In this document: piece after piece, positions 2,434 through 16,327 of the stretch
Layout of the letters: the number at the start of each line of letters is the position of its first letter
Numbering within the stretch: the first letter of the stretch is position 1
NCBI RefSeq assembly: GCF_009759685.1
Contig: NZ_CP046654.1
Span: 3,472,001-3,536,000, forward strand
Origin: Acinetobacter baumannii
Lineage (GTDB): Bacteria > Pseudomonadota > Gammaproteobacteria > Pseudomonadales > Moraxellaceae
Reading direction: 5' to 3'
Length of the DNA stretch: 64,000 bases
Made by a program: the position numbers and the translations under genes
Notes under the pieces: generated by a model
Databases searched by the model: none
What the model saw: only the letters and a program-made list of their open reading frames with translations
What the model was told of the DNA's origin: nothing

Positions 2434-3078
2434 TTAAGATTGTGCAAATGCCCAAATGTCTTTTGATGCAATCGTGTCAGATACGAGTCTAAAACTCATA
2501 GGCTCTAAGTCTTCATCTACCACAACATAGCCTTTCGAGTTATTTTTTAGCGCATCACACTGATTATCGGTCAGTTGATAGTTTGCTGTATTGGCTAATG
2601 CACTTTCAGTAATAACACCCGTAAACACACAATTCGGGTCTTTCGAGACAATTTTGCCTTGTGCATTCACCTCGGCATTGACCGTTGTTCCATCAGGAAA
2701 CGATAAATCGTAGGTGCCGACCAATTGATTAAGCAAAAGTTTTTGATCAGCAATTTTTTCATAATGTGCTAATTCAACGGTCATCGCCTGATTAGACTGG
2801 TTGCTTCGCCAAGCTTTGGTTTTTGTATCATAGCTCATCACAATCTTGGCACGGTTTTCGTCATCATCTAAAACCAATAATTTAGTCCCATCTGCACCAG
2901 AATAGTATTTACCCGCCATAGGTAATTCTTGATCGGTTTCGGTACTAATAATATAAGTTCCGACATCTAAGCTCGGTGCTAGTGCAGGTTTTTCAGTCGA
3001 GACTTGGTCATCATGATCATTGTCATTACAAGCCGCCAATCCAAGTCCAAGGAGTAAAACCAATAAACAACGTTTCAT
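2434..3078 (-). CDS. Putative lipoprotein
   Basis: A 214-residue protein with a classical lipoprotein signal: MKRC, a Leu-rich core, then the lipobox LAAC with the acylated Cys at about residue 17. An Asp/His-rich linker follows. The rest looks like extracytoplasmic beta-rich sequence with two conserved-looking cysteines that could pair. I recognise no domain. It follows the exported SurE gene by 11 bases, is probably co-transcribed, and an AGGAAC site precedes the ATG. A periplasmic partner role with SurE is only an inference from position. Confidence 0.75.
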   Translation of the reverse strand: MKRCLLVLLLGLGLAACNDNDHDDQVSTEKPALAPSLDVGTYIISTETDQELPMAGKYYSGADGTKLLVLDDDENRAKIVMSYDTKTKAWRSNQSNQAMTVELAHYEKIADQKLLLNQLVGTYDLSFPDGTTVNAEVNAQGKIVSKDPNCVFTGVITESALANTANYQLTDNQCDALKNNSKGYVVVDEDLEPMSFRLVSDTIASKDIWAFAQS

Positions 3079-3089
3079 GGTCTTGTTCC

Positions 3090-4058
3090 TTACTTGTTAA
3101 ATAAGCTTTTTAAACGGATTTTAAGCCATTCTTGACCTGCTGGTCGTTGGTCATAAGCAACTTGCATTGCAGTCACAGCAATTTTGCTTTGCATTACAGC
3201 GCTTTCATCCGACATTTGAGCGGCAGTTGGTGCTGATGGTGCCGCGTCTATTCCAAGGCCAAATTGATTGTTGCCTTTATTGTCTTTGGTCACTTGGAAC
3301 TTCAGTTTATATAAGTCATAAGTCCCAATTTTTGAAAATGCAAACGGCGTGCTGGTTGTTAAATTTTTAGGGAAATTCACATTTAGCGTAATGCCTTTTG
3401 GCAACAACTGGCCCTTACCTGCCTTAGCTTGTAATTCTTTTAATAACGCTACGGTTTGTTTTGCCACAATTGCAGAGTTAGGGTTGTTTAAAGTTTTGTC
3501 ATCTACCGTGTTCGTATCGGCGCTTAATGCAATAGACGGAATGCCACGTCCTGCCGAAAACTGTACATTGCCAATGGTGCCAGAGTGTACAACGACTTTT
3601 CCGACATTTTGACCTTCATTCGGGCCAGATAAAACTAAGTCTGGTGCTTTACCCCAGCGTTTTGGTGCAACCACATCTAGTCCATAAACTGTTGCCATGA
3701 CTGGTGTGCCATGTGTGTAGTTCCAGTCGCCATTGGTATAACCCGCTTTGGTAAAAGTTCCAGCCGCAGGTGCACCAATTGGTGCTGCGCCATTGTGACA
3801 ACCGTTTTCAGCCGCAATTTGCTTATCATTATCCGCGGTAATCGTTGTTGAGCTGTACATCACAATCGCGCCACCACGACCGCTTTGTGGTGAACACGGT
3901 ACAGACACAACCACGTTATGACCATTTGCTTTTAATTCATCATAGAGTGCTTTGATATTGCTGGTTAGGCCGTCATCGTTAACCAATAAAATATTTAATG
4001 CAAAAGCTGGAGTCGTACACAAAGACAGAATAAGGCCGCCCAATAAACTTTTTTTCAT
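3090..4058 (-). CDS. Exported SurE-family 5'/3'-nucleotidase
   Basis: About 322 residues. A signal peptide (MKKSLLGGLILSL... cut after PAFA) leads straight into the SurE N-terminus NILLVNDDG. Asp28-Asp29 there are the metal ligands. A SGRGGA loop and an SGPNEGQN motif, also metal and phosphate contacts in SurE, follow. SurE enzymes hydrolyse nucleoside monophosphates and are normally cytoplasmic and about 250 residues long. This one is longer and should act in the periplasm, perhaps scavenging phosphate or nucleosides. The GTG at 4061 is one codon upstream of ATG 4058, and I prefer the ATG. A lipoprotein gene follows in the same unit. Confidence 0.88.
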   Translation of the reverse strand: MKKSLLGGLILSLCTTPAFALNILLVNDDGLTSNIKALYDELKANGHNVVVSVPCSPQSGRGGAIVMYSSTTITADNDKQIAAENGCHNGAAPIGAPAAGTFTKAGYTNGDWNYTHGTPVMATVYGLDVVAPKRWGKAPDLVLSGPNEGQNVGKVVVHSGTIGNVQFSAGRGIPSIALSADTNTVDDKTLNNPNSAIVAKQTVALLKELQAKAGKGQLLPKGITLNVNFPKNLTTSTPFAFSKIGTYDLYKLKFQVTKDNKGNNQFGLGIDAAPSAPTAAQMSDESAVMQSKIAVTAMQVAYDQRPAGQEWLKIRLKSLFNK

Positions 4059-4064
4059 CACTTA

Positions 4065-4136: not shown

Positions 4137-4160
4137 TAACAAAAACCCACTTTCGTGGGC
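4137..4160 (-). terminator. Terminator of the GH3/efflux operon
   Basis: On the minus strand GCCCAC-GAAA-GTGGG is followed by TTTTTG, just past the last gene of the six-gene operon. Confidence 0.8.
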
Positions 4161-4187
4161 TTCATTAAAATTACTTCAAGTTTTAAG

Positions 4188-5351
4188 TTAAATACGTCCA
4201 ACCTCTAAGTATGGAATCAGCTTTTTATCAAAACTTGGCCGAGGGTCACCTTCAAAGCTAATAAAACCATGCATACCCGTTAAACGTTCACCTTTATAAA
4301 ACTGGTTTAACTGATAGCGCGGATCTTTATGTGAAAGTGTAAAACTCACCACACCAACGCCCTGCTGTTTTGACTTGTTATAGGCATCTTCGAGCATTTT
4401 ATGATGCAAAGCCAAATCTTCAGGATGGCACATAAGCGTATGTAGCACATGGTACTGAATAGAGTCACCGAGTTTAGGCAAACGCATGCCTTTGGTAATT
4501 GGCGTCAATAAGTTATAGACGGGTCTAAGCACAGCTATGGCCGAGCTGTAATTTAGAATCTTGGTTTGTTTAATACTATGCTGATCCCATAAGCCAAACA
4601 TGCCCACTAGTTGTTCACCCTTAAAGTAAAGTGAAAAGTCCGAGAGTTTCATCCCTGAAAAATACTGATGACCTTGGGCAAGTTCTTCAAAGTTATAGGC
4701 TGGAATAAAGTTATAGTGTTCTGCCATGTCGCTAATAAACTGGTTCATGGCTGGTACATGCTGAGCTTCAGCGACACATGTACGTATCTCTTGAAGATGA
4801 CTTTGCTGAGAAGTCTGCTTTAGAAAAGCCGTGATTTTCCGTTTTGCGCCAGTGCTCGTCAGACTGAGTGTCTCTATAAGCCCTTCATCATAATAATCGG
4901 GCATTCCCGTTTTGCCTGTTTGGATGGCAGCACGTGCGGCATGGTTATCATCAAAAATAATCATTTGGCTAAAGTTCGGTTCATGCATGGTATCTTTCAC
5001 ATGCTTGCCTAAGACCTTCACCAGTGATTTACCCCGATAACTGTGATCTACCCGTAAGTCCCCAGCATAGCGTAAGTTTTGAATGTTCCGATTGATATAA
5101 CACGGACGGTAACCATTGCTATAACAGGCAACTTTCTTTTGGCTTTCGGTATCTTCAATCACGACATGCAGTTTATGCCGATAGACGATGTCGGACGCCC
5201 TAAAATAACTCGGTTCGCGCTGAAAGCTGATTTGTATGCCTTTGGTGGTCATGGGTACGGCAATTAACTCTCGTAAAGCCTCGTCATCTGCCAAAGTCGC
5301 TTCACGGGTAATAAGCGTATTATCAGTAAGTGGTGGATTTGTTTTATTCAT
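4188..5351 (-). CDS. GNAT-like N-acyltransferase, last gene of GH3/efflux operon
   Basis: 387 residues with two apparent acyltransferase-like halves. The first half carries the GNAT-like run RYAGDLRVDHSYRGKSL, which resembles the acetyl-CoA pyrophosphate loop (R/Q-x-x-G-x-G/S). The second half holds a similar beta-alpha pattern ending in a TGMHGF segment. No membrane segment or signal is visible. It overlaps the tolC-like gene by 8 bases and so is translationally coupled. In this operon a plausible role is acylating the product of the GH3 enzyme or protecting against it. The substrate is unknown. Confidence 0.7.
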   Translation of the reverse strand: MNKTNPPLTDNTLITREATLADDEALRELIAVPMTTKGIQISFQREPSYFRASDIVYRHKLHVVIEDTESQKKVACYSNGYRPCYINRNIQNLRYAGDLRVDHSYRGKSLVKVLGKHVKDTMHEPNFSQMIIFDDNHAARAAIQTGKTGMPDYYDEGLIETLSLTSTGAKRKITAFLKQTSQQSHLQEIRTCVAEAQHVPAMNQFISDMAEHYNFIPAYNFEELAQGHQYFSGMKLSDFSLYFKGEQLVGMFGLWDQHSIKQTKILNYSSAIAVLRPVYNLLTPITKGMRLPKLGDSIQYHVLHTLMCHPEDLALHHKMLEDAYNKSKQQGVGVVSFTLSHKDPRYQLNQFYKGERLTGMHGFISFEGDPRPSFDKKLIPYLEVGRI

Positions 5352-6672
5352 TATTCACCCGTTGTGCGGTCTGCATAGGAACCAAATTGTTTAAACGTCC
5401 CATTTGGTCGAGTAGCTGATAAACAAACACCACTTCGTCTTGGTCATTTACGGTTTTCTGGGTTTGCGCATCGAGTAACTTCTGCTCGGTATTAAGCAAA
5501 TCAAAGGTAGTTTTGGTGCCCACATCGAACTCTTTACGGGTATAGACAAAAGCAATAGACGCTGCCTCTATGGCATTTGCCAATGCATCTTTATTTTGTC
5601 GAATGGTTTGAAGCTGCGCATATGTGGTACGGGTACGCTTGTTCAAGTCTAGCTCAAGACTTCGAATTTTTTGCGCAGCCAAATCGATATCGGCCTGCGC
5701 TTTTTTAACATTGGCCCGATTTAGTCCATCATCATAAAGCGGTACATTGAGCTGCACCCCAACCATATAGTTATTACTTTCAGAGCCAATATAACTCGCT
5801 TCATCTTGCTTTCCGGCACGGCTGGTCAGCATAACCGTTGGCCAGAGTTCTCGTTTAGTTAAAGCGTATTGTTTTTCGGCAGCCTGCTTTTCATATTTAG
5901 CCCGCATTAACGCCGGATGATTCTTGGTTTGAGCCAATATTTCATCTAGGTTAGCGGGAATAGTAGGTAATTGATTGATTGGAACAAGGTTGTCAGGCGT
6001 TATACCTGTCACTTGATAAAACTGCGCTTCGCTTACAGTCAAGTTAGATTGCGCCTGTGTAATATCGGCTTGACCTTGTGCAACTTGTGCCAACACCTGA
6101 GCCAAGTCTGCACGGGTAATCATACCTACATCAAAACGGCGCTTTGATTCATACAAAGACCGTTGCAGATTTGCCATAGTCTTTTGTCTAAGCTCTAAAA
6201 TGGCTTTCTTTTTTAATACATCGGTATAAACCATCACGGTATTTAAAATGGTTTCCGATCTTTGATCTGATAAGCCTTGGTGTTGGGCAGAAAGCTGACT
6301 TTCGGCAATATCTATCCCTAAACGGTGCCGTCCAGAGGTATAAATCGGATAATCTGCCTGCAATTGCAAACTTCGGCCTTTACGGTTTCCTTCGGTTGGA
6401 AACAAGACGTGTGAAGGCGTATTTATTCTTTCATAGTCAAGTTGCCCGACTAAATTAACTTTGAGTCCATCACGTTGCTTGGCCTGTTCAAGCATAGCGG
6501 TGGACTGGTTCACACTTAAACGGCTCACTTCAAGCTGGCTTTCATGCCTTAAACTAGCTGACAAAGCCTCATCTAAAGTCATGGCATGTGTATTCGACAC
6601 AACCAACACGCCTAGAAACAAGGCGTGTCGAAGTGTTAAAAACCGAGTATTAAATGGCTTCATCCCTTTCAT
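5344..6672 (-). CDS. TolC-family outer-membrane efflux protein
   Basis: 442 residues, the usual length for the family. A signal peptide (ending ...SNTHA) is followed by two repeats of long coiled-coil helices. Each half has the OEP pattern, with LDEALSASLRHESQLEVSRL at the start of the first. It should form the trimeric outer-membrane channel of a tripartite pump. With the EmrA- and EmrB-like genes in the same operon it completes a dedicated type of export system. Its start codon overlaps the GH3 stop (ATGA), so translation is coupled. Confidence 0.92.
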   Translation of the reverse strand: MKGMKPFNTRFLTLRHALFLGVLVVSNTHAMTLDEALSASLRHESQLEVSRLSVNQSTAMLEQAKQRDGLKVNLVGQLDYERINTPSHVLFPTEGNRKGRSLQLQADYPIYTSGRHRLGIDIAESQLSAQHQGLSDQRSETILNTVMVYTDVLKKKAILELRQKTMANLQRSLYESKRRFDVGMITRADLAQVLAQVAQGQADITQAQSNLTVSEAQFYQVTGITPDNLVPINQLPTIPANLDEILAQTKNHPALMRAKYEKQAAEKQYALTKRELWPTVMLTSRAGKQDEASYIGSESNNYMVGVQLNVPLYDDGLNRANVKKAQADIDLAAQKIRSLELDLNKRTRTTYAQLQTIRQNKDALANAIEAASIAFVYTRKEFDVGTKTTFDLLNTEQKLLDAQTQKTVNDQDEVVFVYQLLDQMGRLNNLVPMQTAQRVNNE

Positions 6673-8255
6673 AGTTGTTCCAAACTATTCAGGGTGACTT
6701 TTTTGAGTGGCTCAGGTTTGATATTGCCTTCGATAATGCCATCAAACATGACCAGTTTTTTATAGGCATTCCAGCCATTATTGGCTTGGCGAATTTGAGG
6801 CTGATCGAGCTGCCCCAAGTTTCGTGCAAGTTCATAGTGGAAGTTTTGACGTAAGATACTGTCGATATATTCATTACTAATGCTGTGATGAATTTCACCT
6901 TCAAAAAGCACGCAATAAAATGGTTTAACCTGTTGCTGCGTATCAATTGCGAGTAAAGAAATCGCTTTCGATTCCGTTTCGTTTAACTGAGACAACAATT
7001 GTTGAGCAGTTTCAGGTGCTAACTTCTCACCGACCAGATCGACCCCAAAACGGCGGCCTTGGAACTCAAAACACGGAATTTGCTCTATAAAGCCAGTCAC
7101 TTTTAAGCAATCATCCAAACAGTAACGCAGTAAGCCATTACCCGAAGTAATCAGCGGGCTGACCACGTCACCTTGTTTAAGCTGCCATGAAGGAACGATT
7201 TGACCTTGTTTCTCACCCTCTAAATATTCAAACTCATAGAAGTGACTTTGGTATGCGAGCGGGTATTGATCATTATAGGGAATGGTGACTACACCTTCCG
7301 TCGCCCATAACCCTTTACCTTCAAACTGAACACTGGGTAATTTTTCTTTTAATTTTTCGGCCCAAGCTTTTGAACCAGCGGTGTCCCAACTCGACACTAA
7401 ACTTAACTTTGGCCAGAGCTTTTTAAAGTCGATCTGTTCGCCATTTGAACTTGCAATTAAGGCTTGAGCACTTTCAGGGCTATGCGGTGCAGTGACTTCT
7501 TTTAGTGAAGCCTGACGGTTACTCCATGAACCACTTTGTAAAACCTCAATCACGTCTTTTTGCATAGACTCCAAACGTTCAAGTAATTGCAACGCAAACG
7601 TTGGACTCCACACCGAAATCATGGCTAAGTTACGGTTTGCCACCAAATAACAAATGGTGGCAAACAGTGCATCATCAGCATTGGCCGCAAATGCAACGTT
7701 ACTTGGAACCGCTTGGGTAAACTTGGATAAAATTCGCTTACCTATACCAAGTAGCGCACTGTCATCATTTAAATTTTTATCTTTTAAAACTTCACGCTGA
7801 CTTTCAGGCAACCACGACACCGACCAATAATGCGTACCCGAACTCAACTGTGGGCATTTGCGGTATAAACTTGCCATCCACGGCGCAATCGCATGGTCAA
7901 GTTCACCTAAAAACAGCTTGGTATATGGAATAAACTTGATTTGTTCACTCGAACCACTGGTCGGCTGGAAACGAACCAGTTTACTGCTCGAGAGTGAAAG
8001 CTTTTGTTCACGGTAGCGCTGAATGTCTTCTCGCCAAGCACTATAGCGAGTTGCAGGAAATGCTTTTACAAACTGCTCATAGTTTTGAACCTGTTTATCT
8101 TTGGCCAAAGTAGAGGTCTGTAAAATCGAATGCAAAATTTGACGTTGCGTAGTCTCTAAGGCATTAAACTGTTTTTGGAAATTACGGTCAGATGCATCAC
8201 ACCATTTTTTTAAAATAAGATGCGAGCCGAGAGTCAACCATTGATTAGATTTCAT
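6669..8255 (-). CDS. GH3-family acyl-acid amido synthetase
   Basis: 528 residues matching the GH3 superfamily known from plants, where such enzymes adenylate a carboxylic acid and join it to an amino acid. The ATP/phosphate loop appears as QPTSGSSEQIKFIP (about residues 98-111). A WSVSWLPES segment follows. The C-terminal hinge has the GH3 pattern LLRYCLDDCLKVTGF then PCFEFQGRRFG. No membrane segments are present. It lies between an acyltransferase-like gene and tolC, coupled to both by ATGA overlaps. The acid and amine substrates are not predictable. Bacterial GH3 members are mostly uncharacterised. Confidence 0.88.
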   Translation of the reverse strand: MKSNQWLTLGSHLILKKWCDASDRNFQKQFNALETTQRQILHSILQTSTLAKDKQVQNYEQFVKAFPATRYSAWREDIQRYREQKLSLSSSKLVRFQPTSGSSEQIKFIPYTKLFLGELDHAIAPWMASLYRKCPQLSSGTHYWSVSWLPESQREVLKDKNLNDDSALLGIGKRILSKFTQAVPSNVAFAANADDALFATICYLVANRNLAMISVWSPTFALQLLERLESMQKDVIEVLQSGSWSNRQASLKEVTAPHSPESAQALIASSNGEQIDFKKLWPKLSLVSSWDTAGSKAWAEKLKEKLPSVQFEGKGLWATEGVVTIPYNDQYPLAYQSHFYEFEYLEGEKQGQIVPSWQLKQGDVVSPLITSGNGLLRYCLDDCLKVTGFIEQIPCFEFQGRRFGVDLVGEKLAPETAQQLLSQLNETESKAISLLAIDTQQQVKPFYCVLFEGEIHHSISNEYIDSILRQNFHYELARNLGQLDQPQIRQANNGWNAYKKLVMFDGIIEGNIKPEPLKKVTLNSLEQL

Positions 8256-9073
8256 TGGATAGCCTCTCTACGTTTTGTTTTATGGCTTAACTGCGCTTCA
8301 AATTTTCCTTTGCTTGTCGGTTTAGTCATCAGTTTTACAGGGAAACGGGCAATATCTTTCCAGCCGAGCCGACCAATACATGGCAGTTCTGTACCGGCTC
8401 TCCAAGTTGGATTTTTCTGCTCAAAGAAATGAATATTTGGGTTCTTTTCTCTCATTTCGGCAGTAATCGGTGCGACTTCGCCTTTTAATGGTTGATAATC
8501 ATCGCCAAAGTTGAGTAAGCCGGCTTCTTTGTCGTAGTATTCGCCAAAGAATTTTTCACAGTAATGTTCAACCACTTCCGAAAGATGTTGGTTTTCATCT
8601 TTGATATTTGGGTAATACACATAGTAGTTATTGGCAAGTAAGAGATAAGTCTTATAGCCTTTAGAAATGAGAAGCCAATAAAGTTCATTAAAAGGATATT
8701 TAATTCGAAGCTTGATCATGAGTTTGAGCATGGTACTTTGCAAGGTACGCGTGCCCCAAAACTTTTTCAAAATGACCGTATCACCGCTAAAGAGCACGGT
8801 GTAATCTTTACCGTTTAAGTAGAAATGCTGCACAACTACCGTCGAGAAACCAACAATCTCATCTGTTTCTGAGTCAAAAATTAAGATCGCACCGCTTTTA
8901 TTTTTAAAATCATCTACGAAAATAGAAAATCTGGTATTTTCATAATACTGCTCGTAAATGGAATACATCACTTTCAATCGTTCAGTATCGATTTGCTCTT
9001 TTTCAAAATATTGCCCATAAGTTGCGTTTTTCAGGTTCAATTTTGAAATCAGTTTATATGTTGTATTAATCAT
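8252..9073 (-). CDS. Putative GNAT-like acyltransferase of the GH3 operon
   Basis: 273 residues, cytoplasmic. The N-terminal ~170 residues have a GNAT-like order of strands and helices: GAILIFDSETDEIVGFSTVV, then FSGDTVILKKFWGTRTLQS, which resembles strand 4 and the acetyl-CoA loop. The C-terminal third is basic and Pro-rich and ends in IGRLGWKDIARFPVKLM. I do not recognise a named family. Position directly before the GH3 gene with an ATGA overlap says they act together. A precursor-supplying acyltransferase is the best guess. A 150-base gap separates it from the pump genes and holds a small hairpin, so a secondary promoter is possible. Confidence 0.55.
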   Translation of the reverse strand: MINTTYKLISKLNLKNATYGQYFEKEQIDTERLKVMYSIYEQYYENTRFSIFVDDFKNKSGAILIFDSETDEIVGFSTVVVQHFYLNGKDYTVLFSGDTVILKKFWGTRTLQSTMLKLMIKLRIKYPFNELYWLLISKGYKTYLLLANNYYVYYPNIKDENQHLSEVVEHYCEKFFGEYYDKEAGLLNFGDDYQPLKGEVAPITAEMREKNPNIHFFEQKNPTWRAGTELPCIGRLGWKDIARFPVKLMTKPTSKGKFEAQLSHKTKRREAIQ

Positions 9074-9227
9074 AATACTTTAATCTCCCACATCCAGATC
9101 TGTGAGTTCCCCTATCTCATACAGCGATATTCGAAACTCATATCAATGTTCTTTTTCTATGAAGGGATATGTTTTGATATGCCCTATTGTTTTCATTCTT
9201 TGAAAGCTGCCTTTTATTTTTAAATCG

Positions 9228-10775
9228 CTACATATTCATTTTCTTCCCCCGATCCATAAATATGGTTAAAAAGGCGGTCACAAACATGATGATTGCGAGC
9301 ATGCGTAATAAGTCATTGAAACTCGATGTCAGTGCTTGAAAATGAATGTCACGATAGATCACGCTGAGCGCGATTTGCTGGGCATTTGCACCGATTTCTT
9401 GATATTGCGCCGTAAGCTGGTCGAGTCTTTCTGTAAATATCCAGTTTTGTGGTGTCATCGACTGATTAATCTGGGTAACATGCATGGCGGTTAGCCAATC
9501 TAAGGACGAGTTAATAAGAGCCAGTCCAACCGCGCCGCCAATATTGCGCATCAGGTTATAAATCCCACTGGCATCGGCAACTTTACTGAGTGGCAATGTA
9601 CTCATAGCCAAATGTGACACCACAATCAGGCAAATCATGAGGCCAATACCACGGTAAATTTGCGGCCAAAACATAAAGTCATAATCACTATGAATGCTCA
9701 AATGTGAATTGAGCCAGACACCAAAGCCCGCCAGAATCATTCCGACAAATACGGTTTTGCGGGTATCAAAATTGGGAATGAGCCACGCAAGAAATGGCGC
9801 AAAGCAGAACATGACAATACCTGTCACCATCATGACGTGACCAATTTGGCTACTGTTCATTTCACGGACTTGCCCAAGAAAGACAGGAATCATGTAACCC
9901 AAGCCATATAGCGCCATGCCAATCACAAATGTTGTGATGGCACTTAAGGTAAAGTTTTTATTTTTAAATACGGACAAATCGAGCAAAGGTTTAGGCTGAG
10001 TAAAACTTCGAGAGAAGAAAATCATGCCGCCTACAACACAGACCATAAAAGCAACCCGAACGCCTGTATCAGCAAGCCAGTCATGTCGTGCGCCTTCATC
10101 GAGGAAATATTCAAGCCCACCTAAAAACATCGCCATACCCACTAGACTGAGCCAGTCCATGCTTTTGATGAGTGAATAGTTGGCACGGTCGATATTTGGA
10201 CCTGAGTAAATGACTGTGGCAATGATAATGCCCGGAATAATATTGATCAGGAACATCCAGTGCCATGAGAAATTATTGGTGAGCCAACCGCCAATGGTTG
10301 GGCCAATTGCTGGACCTAAAGTACTGATCATGCCAAACATGACCAAAGGTAATGAGCGTTTTGGTTCTGGAAACAGTAAATACAACGCCATCATGGAAGT
10401 CGGAATCATCCCGCCACCCATAAAGCCTTGAATGCCACGGAACACCAGTAAACTTTCTAAGTTCCATGACAAAGCACAAAGTAAAGAACTCACCGTAAAG
10501 CCGATTGCACACATGGTGTAATACACCCGTGTTGAAAGCACTCGCGAGACAATACTCGACATTGGAATTGCAATAATTTCGGCAATTAAATAAACCGTTT
10601 GTACCCAAGTGACTTCATAACGACTTGCACTCATACCAGCTTGTACTTCGTTTAAAGAACTCGCCACAATCTGAATATCAAGAATCGCCATGAAGTTGCC
10701 AAAAATCATGGCAGCAAAAATTGCCCATGCAGTTTTTGCGGGAAACCTCCACTCGGCTTCAACATGCTTATTCAT
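9228..10775 (-). CDS. DHA2 (EmrB/QacA-type) MFS drug exporter
   Basis: 515 residues with about 14 membrane helices. The antiporter motif C appears as LGPAIGPTIGGWLTNNFSWH, and an MAILDIQIV motif in helix 1 is typical of EmrB. It should use the proton gradient to push an amphipathic molecule through the EmrA-like adaptor and TolC-like channel encoded in the same operon. It starts 25 bases after the adaptor gene. The link to a GH3 enzyme suggests that its cargo is a product made by the operon rather than only foreign drugs; this is inference. Confidence 0.92.
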   Translation of the reverse strand: MNKHVEAEWRFPAKTAWAIFAAMIFGNFMAILDIQIVASSLNEVQAGMSASRYEVTWVQTVYLIAEIIAIPMSSIVSRVLSTRVYYTMCAIGFTVSSLLCALSWNLESLLVFRGIQGFMGGGMIPTSMMALYLLFPEPKRSLPLVMFGMISTLGPAIGPTIGGWLTNNFSWHWMFLINIIPGIIIATVIYSGPNIDRANYSLIKSMDWLSLVGMAMFLGGLEYFLDEGARHDWLADTGVRVAFMVCVVGGMIFFSRSFTQPKPLLDLSVFKNKNFTLSAITTFVIGMALYGLGYMIPVFLGQVREMNSSQIGHVMMVTGIVMFCFAPFLAWLIPNFDTRKTVFVGMILAGFGVWLNSHLSIHSDYDFMFWPQIYRGIGLMICLIVVSHLAMSTLPLSKVADASGIYNLMRNIGGAVGLALINSSLDWLTAMHVTQINQSMTPQNWIFTERLDQLTAQYQEIGANAQQIALSVIYRDIHFQALTSSFNDLLRMLAIIMFVTAFLTIFMDRGKKMNM

Positions 10776-10800
10776 TTATGATTACCCAAAATTTTTATTA

Positions 10801-11862
10801 TTAAGTTCTTAGGTCAACGGTGGCGCTCACCGACATTCCAGGTTTTATCAAATCAATATGTGGGCTTGAATCTATAGCAATACGTACAGGAATACGCTGT
10901 ACAACCTTGTTAAAGTTGCCTGTGGCATTGTCTGGTGGCATAAGTGAGAAAGTCGCACCTGAAGCTGGTGAAAAGCTTTCAATTTTTCCGGTAAAGTTGA
11001 GGCTCGGATAGGCATCAAGTTTTAATTTAACTTTCTGACCAATATGCATTTTTTCAATTTGAGTTTCTTTGAAGTTCGCCTGTACATACAAACTATTTTC
11101 AGGAATGATCGCCATTAAGCGGGTTTGCGGAGAAACACGTGAGCCTTTTTGAATTGCCAGACTACCGATTTTACCGCTTACAGGACTAACCACTTTTGAT
11201 GAAGCCAAATCGACTTGATACAGGTTTAAGTTTGCATTGGCACTTTGAATATCTGCTAAAAGCTGCGCTCGACTCGCTTGTAAACTCCCCAACTGAGCTT
11301 CTGCTGCATTTACGGCGGCTTGCGCTTTGCTGAGCTGTGCCTGAGCCGTTAAATATTGAGACTGAATCCCTTCAAAATTTTGTCGGGTAATTACGCCATC
11401 TTTTAATAAATCTTGATAACGCTCGAACTCTTTTTTCAAACGCGCTAGGTCTGCTTGCGCTGCCACTACACCACTATTTGCTTCAATAATTGAAGACTTG
11501 GCAGACTTTTCATTTTGTTGTTGTACACCAAGCGCTGCTTCTTTTAAGCTGACCACAGAACGGGCTTGGTCATAACGAGCTTGGTAGTCACGATGGTCTA
11601 ATACCGCTAAAGTTTCCCCTTTTTTTACAAACTGGTTATCGTTAATTAATAACTCCATCACTTCGCCTGAAATCTTTGGCATCACCCAAGTGACATCGGC
11701 TTGTACATAAGCATTATCAGTAGATTGATAGAATCGGTATACAAAAAAATAATATAAGATGCCAGCAACTAAAAATAACAGCAGGACACTAAAAACACCC
11801 CAAGTTATTTTCTTTCGGCTTTGGAAATTAGTATCAGTTTCTAGCTGAGCTACGTTATCCAT
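10801..11862 (-). CDS. EmrA/HlyD-family membrane fusion protein
   Basis: About 353 residues. One N-terminal membrane anchor at about residues 20-42 is followed by the biotinyl-lipoyl half (STDNAYVQADVTWVMPKISG), a long coiled-coil hairpin, the second lipoyl half (SPVSGKIGSLAIQKGSRV) and a beta-barrel ending in PGMSVSATVDLRT. It bridges the inner-membrane EmrB-like pump to the TolC-like channel. An ATG at 11868 exists, but the AAGCGGA ribosome site abuts it. The ATG at 11862 has proper spacing. It is the first gene of the six-gene operon. Confidence 0.92.
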   Translation of the reverse strand: MDNVAQLETDTNFQSRKKITWGVFSVLLLFLVAGILYYFFVYRFYQSTDNAYVQADVTWVMPKISGEVMELLINDNQFVKKGETLAVLDHRDYQARYDQARSVVSLKEAALGVQQQNEKSAKSSIIEANSGVVAAQADLARLKKEFERYQDLLKDGVITRQNFEGIQSQYLTAQAQLSKAQAAVNAAEAQLGSLQASRAQLLADIQSANANLNLYQVDLASSKVVSPVSGKIGSLAIQKGSRVSPQTRLMAIIPENSLYVQANFKETQIEKMHIGQKVKLKLDAYPSLNFTGKIESFSPASGATFSLMPPDNATGNFNKVVQRIPVRIAIDSSPHIDLIKPGMSVSATVDLRT

Positions 11863-12550
11863 AATCATTCCGCTTATTTGTAATATTCGATTTTTTATTT
11901 AAGCCAATAAAATTATTGGTTTCTTTTTTACGTAACTTTTCACTTGGTTTTATTCAATGAATCGTGACAGCGTAAAATTTGGTGCAAATTATGGTTCTTA
12001 AGTGAATTAAATATCATTGACCTCTTTGACATATATTTTTTCTATTTATGTCAATTAATCATATTATATAAACTATGTTTAAAAATTATGTAATTCGAAT
12101 TTGTCTAAATTTTCTATATAAATTTATTTTAAAGAATCGAATATAAATAATTGTTTTACAAATAAATTACCACTTGGTAGACATGGTTTTTTAAATTTAC
12201 TAAATAACCTTTTATTGCAGTATTATTAAATATAAGTTTAATTATGTAATATTTAAGTATTATTAATTAAAATAATATGTAATTTCAAAATTGGTTAACA
12301 ATCTAAATTGTTATAGTTATACGAATAAGATATATAAGTTATAAATATTATATTTCTTTAAATTAACAACAGTAAAGCTGACAGAATGTATAAATCTTAT
12401 AAGTAATGATTGTTTAATAAATAAGCTATTACAATAAGTAAAATAGCTTATTATTTTTAGATAAAACAATCTTACAAATAAGTTTAAACCTACTATTAAA
12501 AGGTGAACAAACCTTTAAAAATAGTGATTTAAGTGGTGTTGTTTATTGAT
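11863..12550. other. Gene-free AT-rich region upstream of the GH3/efflux operon
   Basis: About 690 bases, extremely AT-rich, with no ORF I can support. It must hold the operon promoter near its left end. A perfect 11-bp inverted repeat AATAAGCTATT / AATAGCTTATT sits at 12420-12452. A second hairpin with AAAGGT / ACCTTT near 12498-12516 probably ends the amidase transcript on the minus strand. Such composition is often bound by H-NS. Confidence 0.6.
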
Positions 12551-13954
12551 TTAAATCCTTAAAAATTTCTTCAAAGCTATTCCAATCGCAGGCAATACAC
12601 TATCTTGATGAGCTAAGCCATCTATTTCAAATCCAATTGGCAGTTTTGATTTCGCACCCTTTCCAATAGGTAAACTCAGGCCCGGTATTCCAATATTACT
12701 GCCGGGGTCTGTATTTCGCATGAGTGTCTGGAAAGTTTCAATTGAATAGACTTGTTCGTTTGCTAGTGGTGCAACAATCGGTGACGTCGGAAATAATAAA
12801 GCATGCAAGTTATGCGTCTTAAATGTGTTTTGGTAGAGTTCAAGCAATTGTGGCCGAGCTTCACTAATCGCTTTTTCATACAAAGGTAAAACTGGAACAA
12901 GTTGACCAGTTTGATCTAGAGTTAACTCAGGAAGAATATTCAGTTTAAAAATTGCCTGTACATCTGGGCTTGAGATCTGATCAACTACAGTCTCTATGGT
13001 CAAATTTACATGATGATCTTTCAAATATTGAATCAGGTCATATTTGCCTTCATAGATGGCCACAGGAAATGAAATAACATGATTAAGTTCTTCTAAATTC
13101 GGCATCTCGACAGGAATAATTTCGACTCCCGCATCTTTTAACAGTCCAAGTGCAATATGTGCCTGCTCATGAACCTCTTCGTTTAAATGATTCCAAAAAT
13201 ATGGATTGATACCGAGTCTAATTTGATGAGGCTGTAATGGTTCTTTCTTTGGCTCTTGAGTAATAAGCTGATCAATTAAGATAATGTCAGATACTGTGTG
13301 TGCAATAGGGCCAGCAGTATCGCGAGTATGTGAAATTGGGGTAATACCTTCTTGTGAATATCGTCCTACCGTTGGACGAAAACCCACACAACCATTTAAG
13401 GCACTTGGCAGTCGAATAGAAGCACCAGTATCTGTACCAATCGCAATTGGAATCATGCCCGCTGCAACAGCCGCAGCACTACCTGAAGAAGACCCGCCAG
13501 CAATGTGCAATGGGTTTACAGCATTTCGTGTACCCACAACACCTTCAATATGCATGGCAGTATTATAGCCTGTGACCCCAAAGGCTAATTCATGCATATT
13601 GGTTTTACCAACAATGATCGCGCCGTGGTCAATAAGCTTTTGAATAATCGGTGCGGAACTTTGAGGCTTAAAATCAGCTAAAGCTGGTGTGCCTGCACTA
13701 TTTGTGAAACCTACAACATGAATTTTATCTTTAACCGCAATTAAAATGCCCATTAAAGCTGGACATGGTTTTCCACTAAGTAGATATTCATCCCAATATT
13801 GAGCTTGTTGAATGGCTGAAGCTTTACACGCGGATGAAGCCCATGTACAGGCTAGGAACTCTTCATTGTCGTGAAGTAGCTCAGCAATATGATCATGATC
13901 AGGGTTATATAGTGGTCCACCAATAGTTAAAAAGTTTGTGCTCCCCCAGTTCAT
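12551..13954 (-). CDS. Amidase-signature-family hydrolase, 5' end probably frameshifted
   Basis: 467 residues of the amidase signature family, which uses a Ser-cisSer-Lys triad to hydrolyse amides. Lys75 lies in LIAVKDKIHV, the Gly/Ser-rich motif GGSSSGSAAAVAAG starts at 153, and the acylated Ser is probably Ser179 in GTDTGASIRLPS. The nearest relatives are glutamyl-tRNA-amidotransferase-like and indoleacetamide-hydrolase-like enzymes; the substrate is unknown. The ATG at 13954 has no good ribosome site. The same frame continues upstream with plausible protein (EEAIRLISAPDL) until a TAG. A second frame starting at 14043 supplies a fitting N-terminus. One lost base near 13989-13993 would explain this. 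Confidence 0.85.
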   Translation of the reverse strand: MNWGSTNFLTIGGPLYNPDHDHIAELLHDNEEFLACTWASSACKASAIQQAQYWDEYLLSGKPCPALMGILIAVKDKIHVVGFTNSAGTPALADFKPQSSAPIIQKLIDHGAIIVGKTNMHELAFGVTGYNTAMHIEGVVGTRNAVNPLHIAGGSSSGSAAAVAAGMIPIAIGTDTGASIRLPSALNGCVGFRPTVGRYSQEGITPISHTRDTAGPIAHTVSDIILIDQLITQEPKKEPLQPHQIRLGINPYFWNHLNEEVHEQAHIALGLLKDAGVEIIPVEMPNLEELNHVISFPVAIYEGKYDLIQYLKDHHVNLTIETVVDQISSPDVQAIFKLNILPELTLDQTGQLVPVLPLYEKAISEARPQLLELYQNTFKTHNLHALLFPTSPIVAPLANEQVYSIETFQTLMRNTDPGSNIGIPGLSLPIGKGAKSKLPIGFEIDGLAHQDSVLPAIGIALKKFLRI

Positions 13955-14365: not shown

Positions 14366-15250
14366 TTAAGGTTTTATCCTAGAAAATATATCAGCAGCTT
14401 GTATTTTAGCTGTTTTATAACCTTCTGAATCACTTTTTTTAATAAATCCAACTAATAATGCATGACTATTATCTTTAATATTTTTGAATAAGATTCTAAT
14501 AGCCCCACCATTATGTGCATCAAATCTAATTTCTCTAAAACCATCTTCTAAAGATTTAAATAAAGGCTCTCCACCCTGAAAATTCCTTTCGCAAGCTAAC
14601 TTAAGCTTTTCTAACACCCTATGTTTATTCTCTCTACTAAGATCATTGTTATACCAATTTTTTAAGATTTCAGAAAGTATATTCGGTTGAACCAGCTCAT
14701 CAATATCTTGCACATTCATTAAATTAAAATGTTCAATACCATGATCTAATGTAGAAATATTTTTTAAAGAAAGTGTGTCCTCTACTGGAACACCAGTTTG
14801 TTCATCTAACCTACGAATGATTACTTCACTGTTGCTCCAACACTTATCTGTATTAATACTTAATAGAATACCTGATATAACCCATGCTAAACCAAATACA
14901 TCAGGTTGTTCGTGGTAGGGTTCATTGTCAACAAAAAACTTATATTCTACAATTTTATCCAATTGCTCTTCGTTTAGATAATCTAATGCCGGACTTTTAT
15001 CTTCTATTTCATATAAAAAAGTTTGTAAATCATTATCACCACATTTTTCAATAAATTGTTCATAAGTTAAGTCTTCAGATATTTTAAAATCAAAAAGTCC
15101 CCCATTATTAGAATCTAAGAAAAAGAAGAATCTATCTTTATCTCTATATAATTGAAGTACACCTTGAATAGCATCCTCAAAAAGAATCATACCTTGGTCT
15201 AAACAACTAGCCGGAAAACTATTAGAATTTATACATATTGTATGATCCAT
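14366..15250 (-). CDS. Unknown protein with RelE/HigB-like C-terminus, third gene of DUF262 module
   Basis: 294 residues, soluble, acidic N-terminal part. I recognise no family over residues 1-220. The last ~65 residues (FREIRFDAHNGGAIRILF...ALLVGFIKK) resemble the RelE/HigB toxin fold, in which R-I-L-F and F-x-K-K segments form the sheet. If so, it could be a ribosome-dependent or other RNase effector guarded by the two upstream proteins. It starts one base after the ATPase stop codon, so the three genes form one transcript. The toxin reading is inference from short motifs. Confidence 0.6.
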   Translation of the reverse strand: MDHTICINSNSFPASCLDQGMILFEDAIQGVLQLYRDKDRFFFFLDSNNGGLFDFKISEDLTYEQFIEKCGDNDLQTFLYEIEDKSPALDYLNEEQLDKIVEYKFFVDNEPYHEQPDVFGLAWVISGILLSINTDKCWSNSEVIIRRLDEQTGVPVEDTLSLKNISTLDHGIEHFNLMNVQDIDELVQPNILSEILKNWYNNDLSRENKHRVLEKLKLACERNFQGGEPLFKSLEDGFREIRFDAHNGGAIRILFKNIKDNSHALLVGFIKKSDSEGYKTAKIQAADIFSRIKP

Positions 15251-15251
15251 G

Positions 15252-16327
15252 TTAGCGACTCCTTTTCGCTAATTTAGATCTATTTTTTAATGTTTGATCG
15301 AAGAATCCATCGGGCCAGAAGTTTATCTTACCTTCTTCATCCATCGTAGGAGTTTCAAGTTTCGTTAGTCCTTCATTTGTTTTTGATAGATAATGAAATT
15401 TAACTTTATTATTATTTAGAATCTGGTCCTTGACAGCAATACGAATACCATCCATCACATGTTCACTATGAGTTTCAACTATAACTTGTACACCGCAAGA
15501 AGCTGCATAGGCTAATAATATCCCCATTGCCGTTTGACCTTGTGGGTGAAGATGGCCTCAGGATTTTCAAGAACTAATAACACTCCGTTTTCTTTTTTAT
15601 GCTTTTCCCATTGTACAAGCCAATCATCCAAAAGATAACTAGGTGCTAATGCAGTTGCTCCCAATGTAGCTGCAATAATTGGTAGAGTATAACTAAGACC
15701 AAATCCCACATTGGCTGGCCGAAAATTATCTATCTCAGCATGGGAAATGTCAGCCTTTCTATTGGTAGAAAAAGAAAACTGAACTCCTGGTGAAATTTCA
15801 TTAAGCCAGCCCTGCAGAACAAACTCAAATGTTTTACCCTGTGCTAGAGAATGAATCATTTGCTCAGGTAATAAATATCCACTCTCCTCCAGTTTTTTAA
15901 TAAAATCAAAAACATACTCACCTCTATCTCCAACCTTAGGTTTGGCATCAAGAGCAACATTTAATGGTAGGAATGGTTGAGGCCCCAAACGATCAGCACC
16001 TACATAAAAAAACTCAGGACATTTTATTGGTGATTCTAGTATTTCATGATCACCTAGACATAATGAGCTAATAATATTTTCTTCAAAAGATAATTTTATA
16101 TCAATAGAATCATTGGCATTAACAAAGTCTGAACGAAGATCCGATATATTTCCATGTCCGCCAAGTAAAGGAGAGCTTCCATTATAGGCTGCAGAATACA
16201 TTCTCAATGACTGAATAATCGAACTTTTACCACTATTATTTAATCCTGCAAGTAAAGTTAAATTAGAAAAATCGATTTTCTGATTAACTATTGACTTATA
16301 TCCTTTGATTTCTAATTGCTTAATCAA
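15252..16327 (-). pseudogene. AAA ATPase with DUF3696, split by a one-base deletion
   Basis: The intact protein would be about 358 residues. It starts at a TTG (16327) that overlaps the DUF262 stop and follows GGGGAAGAAAG. Walker A is LAGLNNSGKSSIIQS at about residues 26-40. The frame runs to LLVLENPEA and then goes wrong. One base added between 15554 and 15555 restores HLHPQGQTAMGILL, the expected D-loop/His motif, followed by VIVETHSEHVMDGIR and the DUF3696 tail to 15252. As written there are two ORFs (15512-16327 and 15252-15527). Proteins of this type sense or signal in phage-defence pairs. It is either a real inactivating mutation or an assembly error. Confidence 0.85.

What the first reader, a model, noticed from the sequence alone, without database searches (positions are those of the whole stretch)
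4188..11862. GH3 amido synthetase wired into a complete EmrA-EmrB-TolC operon with two acyltransferase-like genes
Six minus-strand genes run with gaps or overlaps of a few bases: EmrA, EmrB, a GNAT-like protein, GH3, TolC and a second GNAT-like protein. ATGA overlaps couple the last four. GH3 enzymes join acids to amino acids in plants; bacterial roles are poorly known. A dedicated tripartite pump in the same transcript implies that the cell makes and exports an acyl-amide conjugate, perhaps a signal, toxin or chelator. I know of no described system with this set.
Basis: partly seen in the sequence, partly recalled or inferred. Interest (0 to 1): 0.8.

Follow-up and report, generated by a model that had tools for sequence, protein, structure and literature searches.

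The report
Exported acyl-amide operon with interchangeable pumps
Many Acinetobacter and related bacteria carry a conserved three-enzyme set (one amide-bond maker and two acyl-transfer-type enzymes), often paired with an exporter whose type differs between lineages; it probably makes and ships out a still unknown fatty amide.

Summary
The six genes are real, in the stated order and strand, but the spacing is partly misdescribed: 154 nt separate EmrB from the first GNAT gene. The conserved unit is a three-gene core, GNAT1-GH3-GNAT2. Of 71 Acinetobacter loci, 46 carry the whole EmrA-EmrB-core-TolC order; 20 carry the core alone, 19 of them beside clpB. In 173 Acinetobacter genomes this EmrB (75% identity or more) was found only in the operon, so the pump looks dedicated. 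Outside the genus, 29 of 43 complete cores lie near another exporter: adaptor plus RND (26), an independent EmrAB (1) or MMPL (2). Different exporters beside one enzyme core argue that its product leaves the cytoplasm. GNAT2 is predicted as a tandem GNAT whose 50 listed solved matches are all N-myristoyltransferases, without sequence support. Neighbours elsewhere include a PapA-like acyltransferase and fatty-acid desaturases. Best reading: GH3 makes an N-acyl amide, the GNATs transfer further acyl groups, and the amphiphile is exported. Substrates and product are inferred, not shown. The one bacterial GH3 with a shown function that I found in print is OlsH (ornithine lipid synthesis); no description of this cluster turned up in capped searches of open-licence papers.

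The parts
12017..12054 (-). Conserved inverted repeat TTGAC-N28-GTCAA upstream of EmrA; a weak promoter-like pair (12017 to 11988) abuts it
   Evidence: pattern in 42 of 47 EmrA upstream regions against a mean of 0.46 (highest 2) of 47 in 100 resamplings, relatedness not corrected; 0 of 19 upstream regions of GNAT1 in the pump-less block; promoter-like pair 9 of 12, where such pairs were no commoner than in shuffles
10801..11868 (-). EmrA-type periplasmic adaptor (the start may be the inner ATG at 11862)
   Evidence: present in 46 of 71 loci
9228..10775 (-). EmrB-type DHA2 MFS exporter, dedicated to this operon in the genus
   Evidence: TIGR00711 372 bits; genus search
9074..9227 (-). 154-nt gap between EmrB and the biosynthetic core
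   Evidence: no Rfam match up to E 0.1
8252..9073 (-). GNAT1: single GNAT fold plus an extra C-terminal part, function unknown
   Evidence: pLDDT 84; AAC(2') and other GNATs, best E 5e-6, about 140 columns aligned; relatives in 464 stretches of GTDB r220
6669..8255 (-). GH3-family acyl-adenylating amido synthetase
   Evidence: nucleotide-motif residues invariant across 26 diverse members
5344..6672 (-). TolC-family outer-membrane channel; in Acinetobacter found only with this operon or its remnant
4188..5351 (-). GNAT2: tandem GNAT, most like N-myristoyltransferase in predicted fold, with a fixed C-terminus (...GRI)
   Evidence: pLDDT 90.8; 50 of 50 listed hits are N-myristoyltransferase
4142..4163 (-). 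Terminator-like hairpin after the last gene
   Evidence: pattern only

Best explanation
A biosynthesis-and-export operon for an acylated amide (a lipoamino-acid-like amphiphile). GH3 activates a fatty or similar carboxylic acid with ATP and joins it to an amine or amino acid (inferred from the family and from OlsH). GNAT1 and the N-myristoyltransferase-like GNAT2 add or transfer further acyl groups from CoA or ACP donors (inferred from fold). The EmrA-EmrB-TolC pump moves the product across both membranes (inferred from dedicated linkage and from exporter swapping). The core is more widespread than this pump; other lineages pair it with RND-type, other MFS or MMPL exporters. The pump-less form may act in the envelope or use a general exporter.
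For: Core: profile hits to all three of GNAT1, GH3 and GNAT2 in 67 of 71 Acinetobacter loci and in 43 of 56 loci outside the genus (loci were fetched through GH3, GNAT2 or GNAT1 hits, and broken copies count as present). Dedicated pump. Exporter swapping, of the 43 outside: 24 with adaptor+RND on the core's strand, 2 more with that pair on the other strand, 1 with EmrAB, 2 with MMPL right after GNAT2 (a search with the L133 MMPL found only these two loci). On a GH3 tree of 77 rows the exporter label needs 9 changes against a shuffled mean of 37.2; the Acinetobacter EmrAB form is one clade (SH-aLRT 99), while the other EmrAB case sits among RND forms. Acyl chemistry: OlsH, a GH3-like enzyme, makes N-acyl ornithine from free fatty acid, ATP and ornithine (PMC12493201). 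GNAT2 resembles N-myristoyltransferase in predicted fold and has a fixed C-terminal end (104 of 105). A PapA-like acyltransferase lies in 17 of the 43 (PapA_C in 7 of 11 members, best E 2.7e-7). Desaturase families occur in several distant clusters (Pfam run on one member of each), an acyl-CoA dehydrogenase family in 5 order-level loci (one member scanned).
Against: No substrate or product is shown. GNAT2 aligns to N-myristoyltransferase only by predicted fold (TM about 0.5, rmsd about 7-9 A, 10-13% identity); sequence profiles do not find that family. A fixed C-terminal end is not special in itself: EmrB has it in 46 of 46 and GH3 in 61 of 69. 20 of 71 Acinetobacter loci show no exporter, and 14 of the 43 outside show no complete one; of these 14, five are on contigs under 10 kb and two of the five show an adaptor gene. 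The fatty-acid evidence comes from neighbours in other taxa, not from the window. GNAT1's role is open.
Confidence: 0.5

Rival explanations
1. A structural envelope lipid rather than a secreted metabolite: the core makes an aminolipid that stays in the membranes, and the exporter places it in the outer membrane.
For: 20 of 71 Acinetobacter loci lack a pump at the locus; the known bacterial GH3, OlsH, makes a membrane lipid precursor (PMC12493201); MMPL and PapA-like neighbours elsewhere.
Against: A full EmrA-EmrB-TolC with its own TolC fits release into the medium better. A. baumannii makes its ornithine and lysine lipids with OlsB and OlsA (PMC11828411, passages), and the window's genome has three PF13444 (OlsB-type family) matches elsewhere, so an ornithine lipid as product is unlikely.
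Confidence: 0.2
2. Detoxification: GH3 conjugates a toxic or hormone-like acid (for example indole-3-acetic acid) to an amino acid and the pump expels the conjugate.
For: Plant GH3 enzymes conjugate auxin, jasmonate and benzoates (names); an indoleacetamide-hydrolase-like amidase lies upstream at 12551-13954 (500 bits, cut-off 532).
Against: The amidase matches in only 9 of the 15 closest loci (L078-L092; two of the other six end at a contig edge) and in none of the other 56. Two conserved GNAT-fold proteins and the neighbours in other taxa are not explained.
Confidence: 0.12
3. A chelator (siderophore-like) pathway.
For: A dedicated exporter and acyl-transfer enzymes also occur in siderophore loci (general knowledge, recalled).
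Against: No siderophore synthetase or receptor was among the ten window proteins scanned around the operon; neither was searched for in the relatives, and no iron-box search was done.
Confidence: 0.06
4. The pump is a general drug pump that happened to join the operon and has no role for the core's product.
For: EmrAB-type pumps are known drug pumps (recalled); the core persists without it.
Against: The pump was not found away from the core in 173 genomes at the thresholds used, and exporters of other families are linked to the core elsewhere.
Confidence: 0.1

Closest known systems
OlsH/OlsI ornithine-lipid pathway of Singulisphaera acidiphila (PMC12493201)
   Same: A bacterial GH3-like enzyme of similar length (526 against 528 aa) forming the first amide bond, with an acyltransferase encoded nearby
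   Different: There the partners are an alpha/beta-hydrolase (OlsI) and a methyltransferase; here two GNAT-fold proteins and an exporter. The words GNAT and Acinetobacter do not occur in the paper's main text
Plant GH3 acyl acid amido synthetases (GH3.12, GH3.15, JAR1)
   Same: Same family; profile match to GH3.12 over positions 184-415 and the nucleotide motifs
   Different: Low similarity, plant hormone-type substrates (molecule names)
EmrA-EmrB-TolC multidrug efflux
   Same: EmrB-subfamily permease over its cut-off, EmrA-like adaptor, TolC-family channel
   Different: The channel is encoded inside the operon and the pump was found only with the core in this genus
N-myristoyltransferase
   Same: Predicted tandem-GNAT architecture and an invariant C-terminal end
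   Different: No detected sequence relationship; bacterial; substrate unknown
N-acyl amino acid synthases (FeeM) and OlsB (PF13444)
   Same: GNAT-type enzymes that make N-acyl amino acids (PMC11631085, passages)
   Different: PF13444 was not among the families matched by the 26 GNAT2 or 31 GNAT1 members scanned

Membership tests
GH3 amido synthetases | Family profile over cut-off | tested here: met
   PF03321 118 bits and PF23571 61 bits (cut-offs 23.6); PF23572 19 bits, below its cut-off of 23.6
GH3 amido synthetases | Three nucleotide-binding motifs | tested here: met
   T99, G101, K107 (TSGSS..K), T319, E320 (WATE) and R377, Y378, D382 (LLRYCLDD) invariant in 26 diverse members; motif definitions from PMC12493201 section 6. 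The glycine just before the last D of motif 3 is D in the window protein
GH3 amido synthetases | ATP-dependent amide bond formation | not testable with these tools
   needs an assay
OlsH-type ornithine-lipid pathway | Linked OlsI (alpha/beta-hydrolase) | tested here: not met
   None among the ten window proteins scanned around the operon
OlsH-type ornithine-lipid pathway | Closest relationship to OlsH among GH3 proteins | not tested
   the OlsH sequence was not fetched
EmrAB-TolC tripartite pump | EmrB permease, EmrA adaptor and TolC-family channel together | tested here: met
   TIGR00711 over cut-off; TIGR00998 272 bits, below its cut-off; PF02321 over cut-off
EmrAB-TolC tripartite pump | Drug export | not testable with these tools
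   needs transport or susceptibility data
GNAT superfamily | GNAT fold in GNAT1 | tested here: met
   Foldseek to AAC(2') and others, best E 5e-6, prob 1.00; no confident Pfam GNAT match (best 0.042)
GNAT superfamily | GNAT fold, tandem, in GNAT2 | tested here: met
   PF13527 in 10 of 26 members, best E 1.2e-6
N-myristoyltransferase | Sequence-profile membership | tested here: not met
   No NMT family or chain among the matches
N-myristoyltransferase | Overall fold | tested here: inconclusive
   50 of 50 listed hits are NMT, best E 1.9e-12, but TM about 0.5 and rmsd about 7-9 A
N-myristoyltransferase | C-terminal carboxylate in catalysis (recalled) | tested here: inconclusive
   Fixed C-terminal end in 104 of 105 homologues is consistent, but EmrB is as fixed; the active site was not examined

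The most novel reading that the evidence does not exclude
A new class of exported bacterial lipid-amide made by a GH3 ligase together with a bacterial N-myristoyltransferase-like enzyme that uses its own C-terminal carboxylate in catalysis, delivered by whichever tripartite or MMPL exporter a lineage recruited. In Alcanivoracaceae it might be the unassigned pathway to lipoamino-acid surfactants such as proline lipid.
Probability: 0.3. Interest if true: 0.78.

Novelty: new variant of a known kind. Interest (0 to 1): 0.56.

Why it matters
Bacterial GH3 enzymes are widespread (PMC12493201 reports more than 7500 hits; passage) but, in the literature I found, only OlsH has a shown function. Here a GH3 sits in a conserved core carried by many Acinetobacter species (among the named loci A. 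nosocomialis, A. pittii, A. baylyi and A. venetianus) and by Alkanindiges, Agitococcus and Alcanivorax, with a linked exporter in most complete loci. That gives a direct way to find the product: delete the core or the pump and look for what disappears from the medium. It would also test whether bacteria have a myristoyltransferase-like enzyme that acts on small molecules, and may supply the missing genes for lipoamino-acid surfactants, whose biosynthesis in marine bacteria a 2019 review called not described (PMC6669457, passage).

Tried and rejected
Ornithine lipid as product: A. baumannii uses OlsBA (PMC11828411, passages), and PF13444 matches are present elsewhere in the window's genome. Auxin conjugation through the upstream amidase: synteny restricted to 9 of the 15 closest loci. 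GNAT1 as LuxI, FeeM or OlsB-like: no PF13444 match, and Foldseek ranks AAC(2') first. Sequence proof that GNAT2 is an N-myristoyltransferase: none. RNA element in the operon: none up to E 0.1.

Literature. Searches for a description of the operon gave none among the papers listed (1 of 1; 11: 20 of 303; 24: 20 of 30; 25: 5 of 5; 56: 3 of 3; 71: 15 of 102; 97: 15 of 322); only titles and abstract beginnings were seen there, and unlisted papers were not. A search for a bacterial NMT-like enzyme found 0 papers with narrow terms. [quoted passage not shown]

GNAT1-GH3 fusion in L117: kept only as a note, because the genome is 88% complete in about 280 contigs and its GNAT2 lies in two pieces. PDB search with the PapA-like family: the best-scoring hit (4p99, E 1.2e-6) is an unrelated chain with no single stretch passing; PapA5 came second at E 0.027.

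Rows left out before counts: the GH3 tree used 77 rows after dropping partial and near-identical sequences; its label 'none' includes contig-edge cases (L047, L109, L120) and the MMPL locus L133, which adds changes. The 43-of-56 count is over loci fetched through GNAT1 hits, so it is biased toward GNAT1; 9 of the 56 show GNAT1 alone and 4 GNAT1 plus GH3 (in L151 a GNAT2 lies on the other strand). Presence means a profile hit, intact or not. The named loci L159-L238 largely repeat the unnamed ones and were not added to the counts.
Full report
What is there. Six minus-strand genes lie between 4188 and 11868: EmrA, EmrB, a 273-aa protein (GNAT1), GH3, TolC and a 387-aa protein (GNAT2). Families: PF03321/PF23571 for GH3, PF02321 for TolC, TIGR00711 for EmrB, EmrA-like for the adaptor. 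A terminator-like hairpin follows at 4163-4142 (weak). The window lies in an unnamed Acinetobacter genome. The nearest named loci include A. nosocomialis, A. pittii and A. seifertii (97% in GNAT1). A. baumannii is absent from that list, which may leave out near relatives of the window, so A. baumannii itself is possible (inference).

How conserved. GH3 matches in 70 of 175 Acinetobacter genomes, GNAT2 in 69 of 173, GNAT1 in 72 of 173 including some weak paralogues. I fetched 71 loci around them. Of these 71, 46 hold all six genes in order, 20 hold GNAT1, GH3 and GNAT2 without a pump, one has the core plus TolC at a contig edge, and four are partial. Some of the counted genes are broken. In the block of 22 loci L022-L043 (18 pump-less with the core in the usual order, one rearranged, three partial) a ClpB-like gene (c7) lies within two open frames upstream in 22 of 22 and an RlmL-like gene (c12) within five downstream in 21 of 22 (the names ClpB and RlmL are mine from the sequences, not from a family search). 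The 20th pump-less locus, L045, is elsewhere. Orthologues of both flanking genes also lie about the core in L104, L105, L107 (genus g10; Alkanindiges and kin) and in L110. So the core can stand alone, and this slot is shared beyond the genus.

Is the pump dedicated? At 75% identity or more, EmrB has 46 copies in 45 of 173 genomes, all in genomes whose copy is in the operon; one other genome has a 39% match (matches up to E 1e-100, at most 8 candidates scored per genome). TolC: 47 matches up to E 1e-60 in 46 of 173 genomes, all with the core by position. In the 20 pump-less loci (16 to 20 kb each) none of the exporter profiles gave a kept hit.

Outside the genus. The GNAT1 profile finds relatives in 40 of 149 family-level genomes (21 of them Acinetobacter), 24 of 293 order-level, 9 of 369 class-level and 6 of 299 phylum-level genomes, the window's own included each time and some genomes counted twice, and in 464 stretches of GTDB r220 (80 kept). 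Of 56 loci fetched outside the genus, 43 have the whole core. Of these 43: 24 have an adaptor plus an RND permease on the core's strand in the fetched stretch, 2 have that pair on the other strand, 1 has an EmrAB pair (L135), and 2 (L133, L148) have an MMPL protein directly after GNAT2, in two open frames in L148. A search with the L133 MMPL protein over the loci L022-L092 and L103-L238 found only these two. Of the 14 that remain, five sit on contigs under 10 kb, and two of those five show an adaptor gene. A PapA-like acyltransferase (invariant H-x3-D-G) lies in 17 of 43; PapA_C matches 7 of 11 members scanned, best E 2.7e-7. An AraC-type regulator gene matches in 20 of 43, on the opposite strand in 19. 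Several distant class-level clusters carry members of fatty-acid desaturase, Rieske oxygenase and radical SAM families and an AurF-like gene below its cut-off (one representative of each was scanned).

Tree. On a GH3 tree of 77 rows (quick method, SH-aLRT only) the four exporter labels need 9 changes; shuffled labels need 37.2 on average and none of 200 was as low. The Acinetobacter EmrAB form is one clade (SH-aLRT 99) with two rows lacking a pump inside it (L045, and L047 at a contig edge). The EmrAB case L135 branches among RND forms (its group of ten rows 99, the inner fork 88). Long branches (L146, L147, L151, L153 and others) make the deep order unsure.

The two GNAT proteins. GNAT1: AlphaFold2 pLDDT 84; Foldseek best hit AAC(2')-Ia at E 5e-6, about 140 alignment columns for 273 residues, so a GNAT core with an extra C-terminal part. 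GNAT2: pLDDT 90.8; all 50 listed Foldseek hits (of 198 with E up to 0.001) are N-myristoyltransferases, best E 1.9e-12, TM about 0.5, 10-13% identity, rmsd about 7-9 A. Sequence profiles do not reach that family. GNAT2 ends at the same position in 104 of 105 homologues that reach the profile end, in R-I or R-L in 101 of 105; the exception (L120) has ambiguous letters near its end. As yardsticks, EmrB ends are fixed in 46 of 46 and GH3 in 61 of 69, GNAT1 in 42 of 67, so a fixed end alone proves nothing. That N-myristoyltransferase uses its C-terminal carboxylate is recalled, not from a call.

GH3. Nucleotide-motif residues are invariant across 26 diverse members. Profile search finds plant GH3.12 and GH3.15 at 2e-13 to 4e-13. 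The functional bacterial GH3 that I found, OlsH, makes N-acyl ornithine from free fatty acid (PMC12493201; abstract, section 6, first part of section 9 and found passages seen). Its authors expect other amino acids as substrates for other bacterial GH3 proteins.

Reading. The linkage, the dedication of the pump and the presence of different exporters by the same core are shown here by comparison. That the product is exported follows with fair strength. That it is a fatty-acyl amide is inferred from OlsH, the N-myristoyltransferase-like fold and the PapA-like, MMPL and desaturase neighbours in other taxa. The identity of acid and amine, the order of steps and the biological role are unknown.

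Regulation. An inverted repeat TTGAC-N(24-40)-GTCAA lies upstream of EmrA in 42 of 47 regions, against a mean of 0.46 (highest 2) of 47 in resampled sequence. In the seven hits printed it lies 175 to 192 bases before the open frame's start in six and 242 in one (L050). It is absent before GNAT1 in the pump-less block (0 of 19). Close relatedness of many rows inflates this count. In the window it is 12017-12054, next to a weak promoter-like pair.

Limits. No expression, substrate or metabolite data were available. The library is open-licence papers only. Alcanivorax dieselolei, the proline-lipid producer (PMC6669457 and PMC5174103, passages), was not itself checked for the core.

Noticed in passing
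window 12551-13954: Amidase close to the indoleacetamide hydrolase model (500 bits, cut-off 532), upstream of the operon in 9 of the 15 closest loci only.
   Followed up: partly
window 12017-12054: Conserved inverted repeat upstream of EmrA, possibly an operator; not found before GNAT1 in the pump-less block.
   Followed up: partly
window 2434-4061: SurE-family protein with a signal-like N-terminus followed by a small lipoprotein-like gene, downstream of the operon in 8 of the 15 closest loci.
   Followed up: no
window 14366-16327: Three neighbouring minus-strand open frames beginning with what looks like an AAA-type ATPase, seemingly split into two frames (my reading of the sequence, no family search).
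   Followed up: no
L048 and L049 (one genome): Two diverged copies of the six-gene operon in the same genome.
   Followed up: no
L039, L042, L043, L054, L061, L078, L087: Broken, interrupted or remnant copies of core genes.
   Followed up: no
L117:440-2812: GNAT1 and GH3 in one 790-aa open frame; the assembly is fragmented, so the fusion is unsure.
   Followed up: no
L041:6346-11291: Rearranged core: GNAT2, a membrane-transporter-like gene, GNAT1, GH3.
   Followed up: no
L152-L158: Distant GNAT1 homologues, five of seven loci with GH3, in clusters with desaturase, Rieske and radical SAM families and an AurF-like gene; may be a separate metabolite pathway.
   Followed up: partly
L140-L143: GNAT1 homologues without a GH3 or GNAT2 hit, in a different shared neighbourhood.
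   Followed up: no
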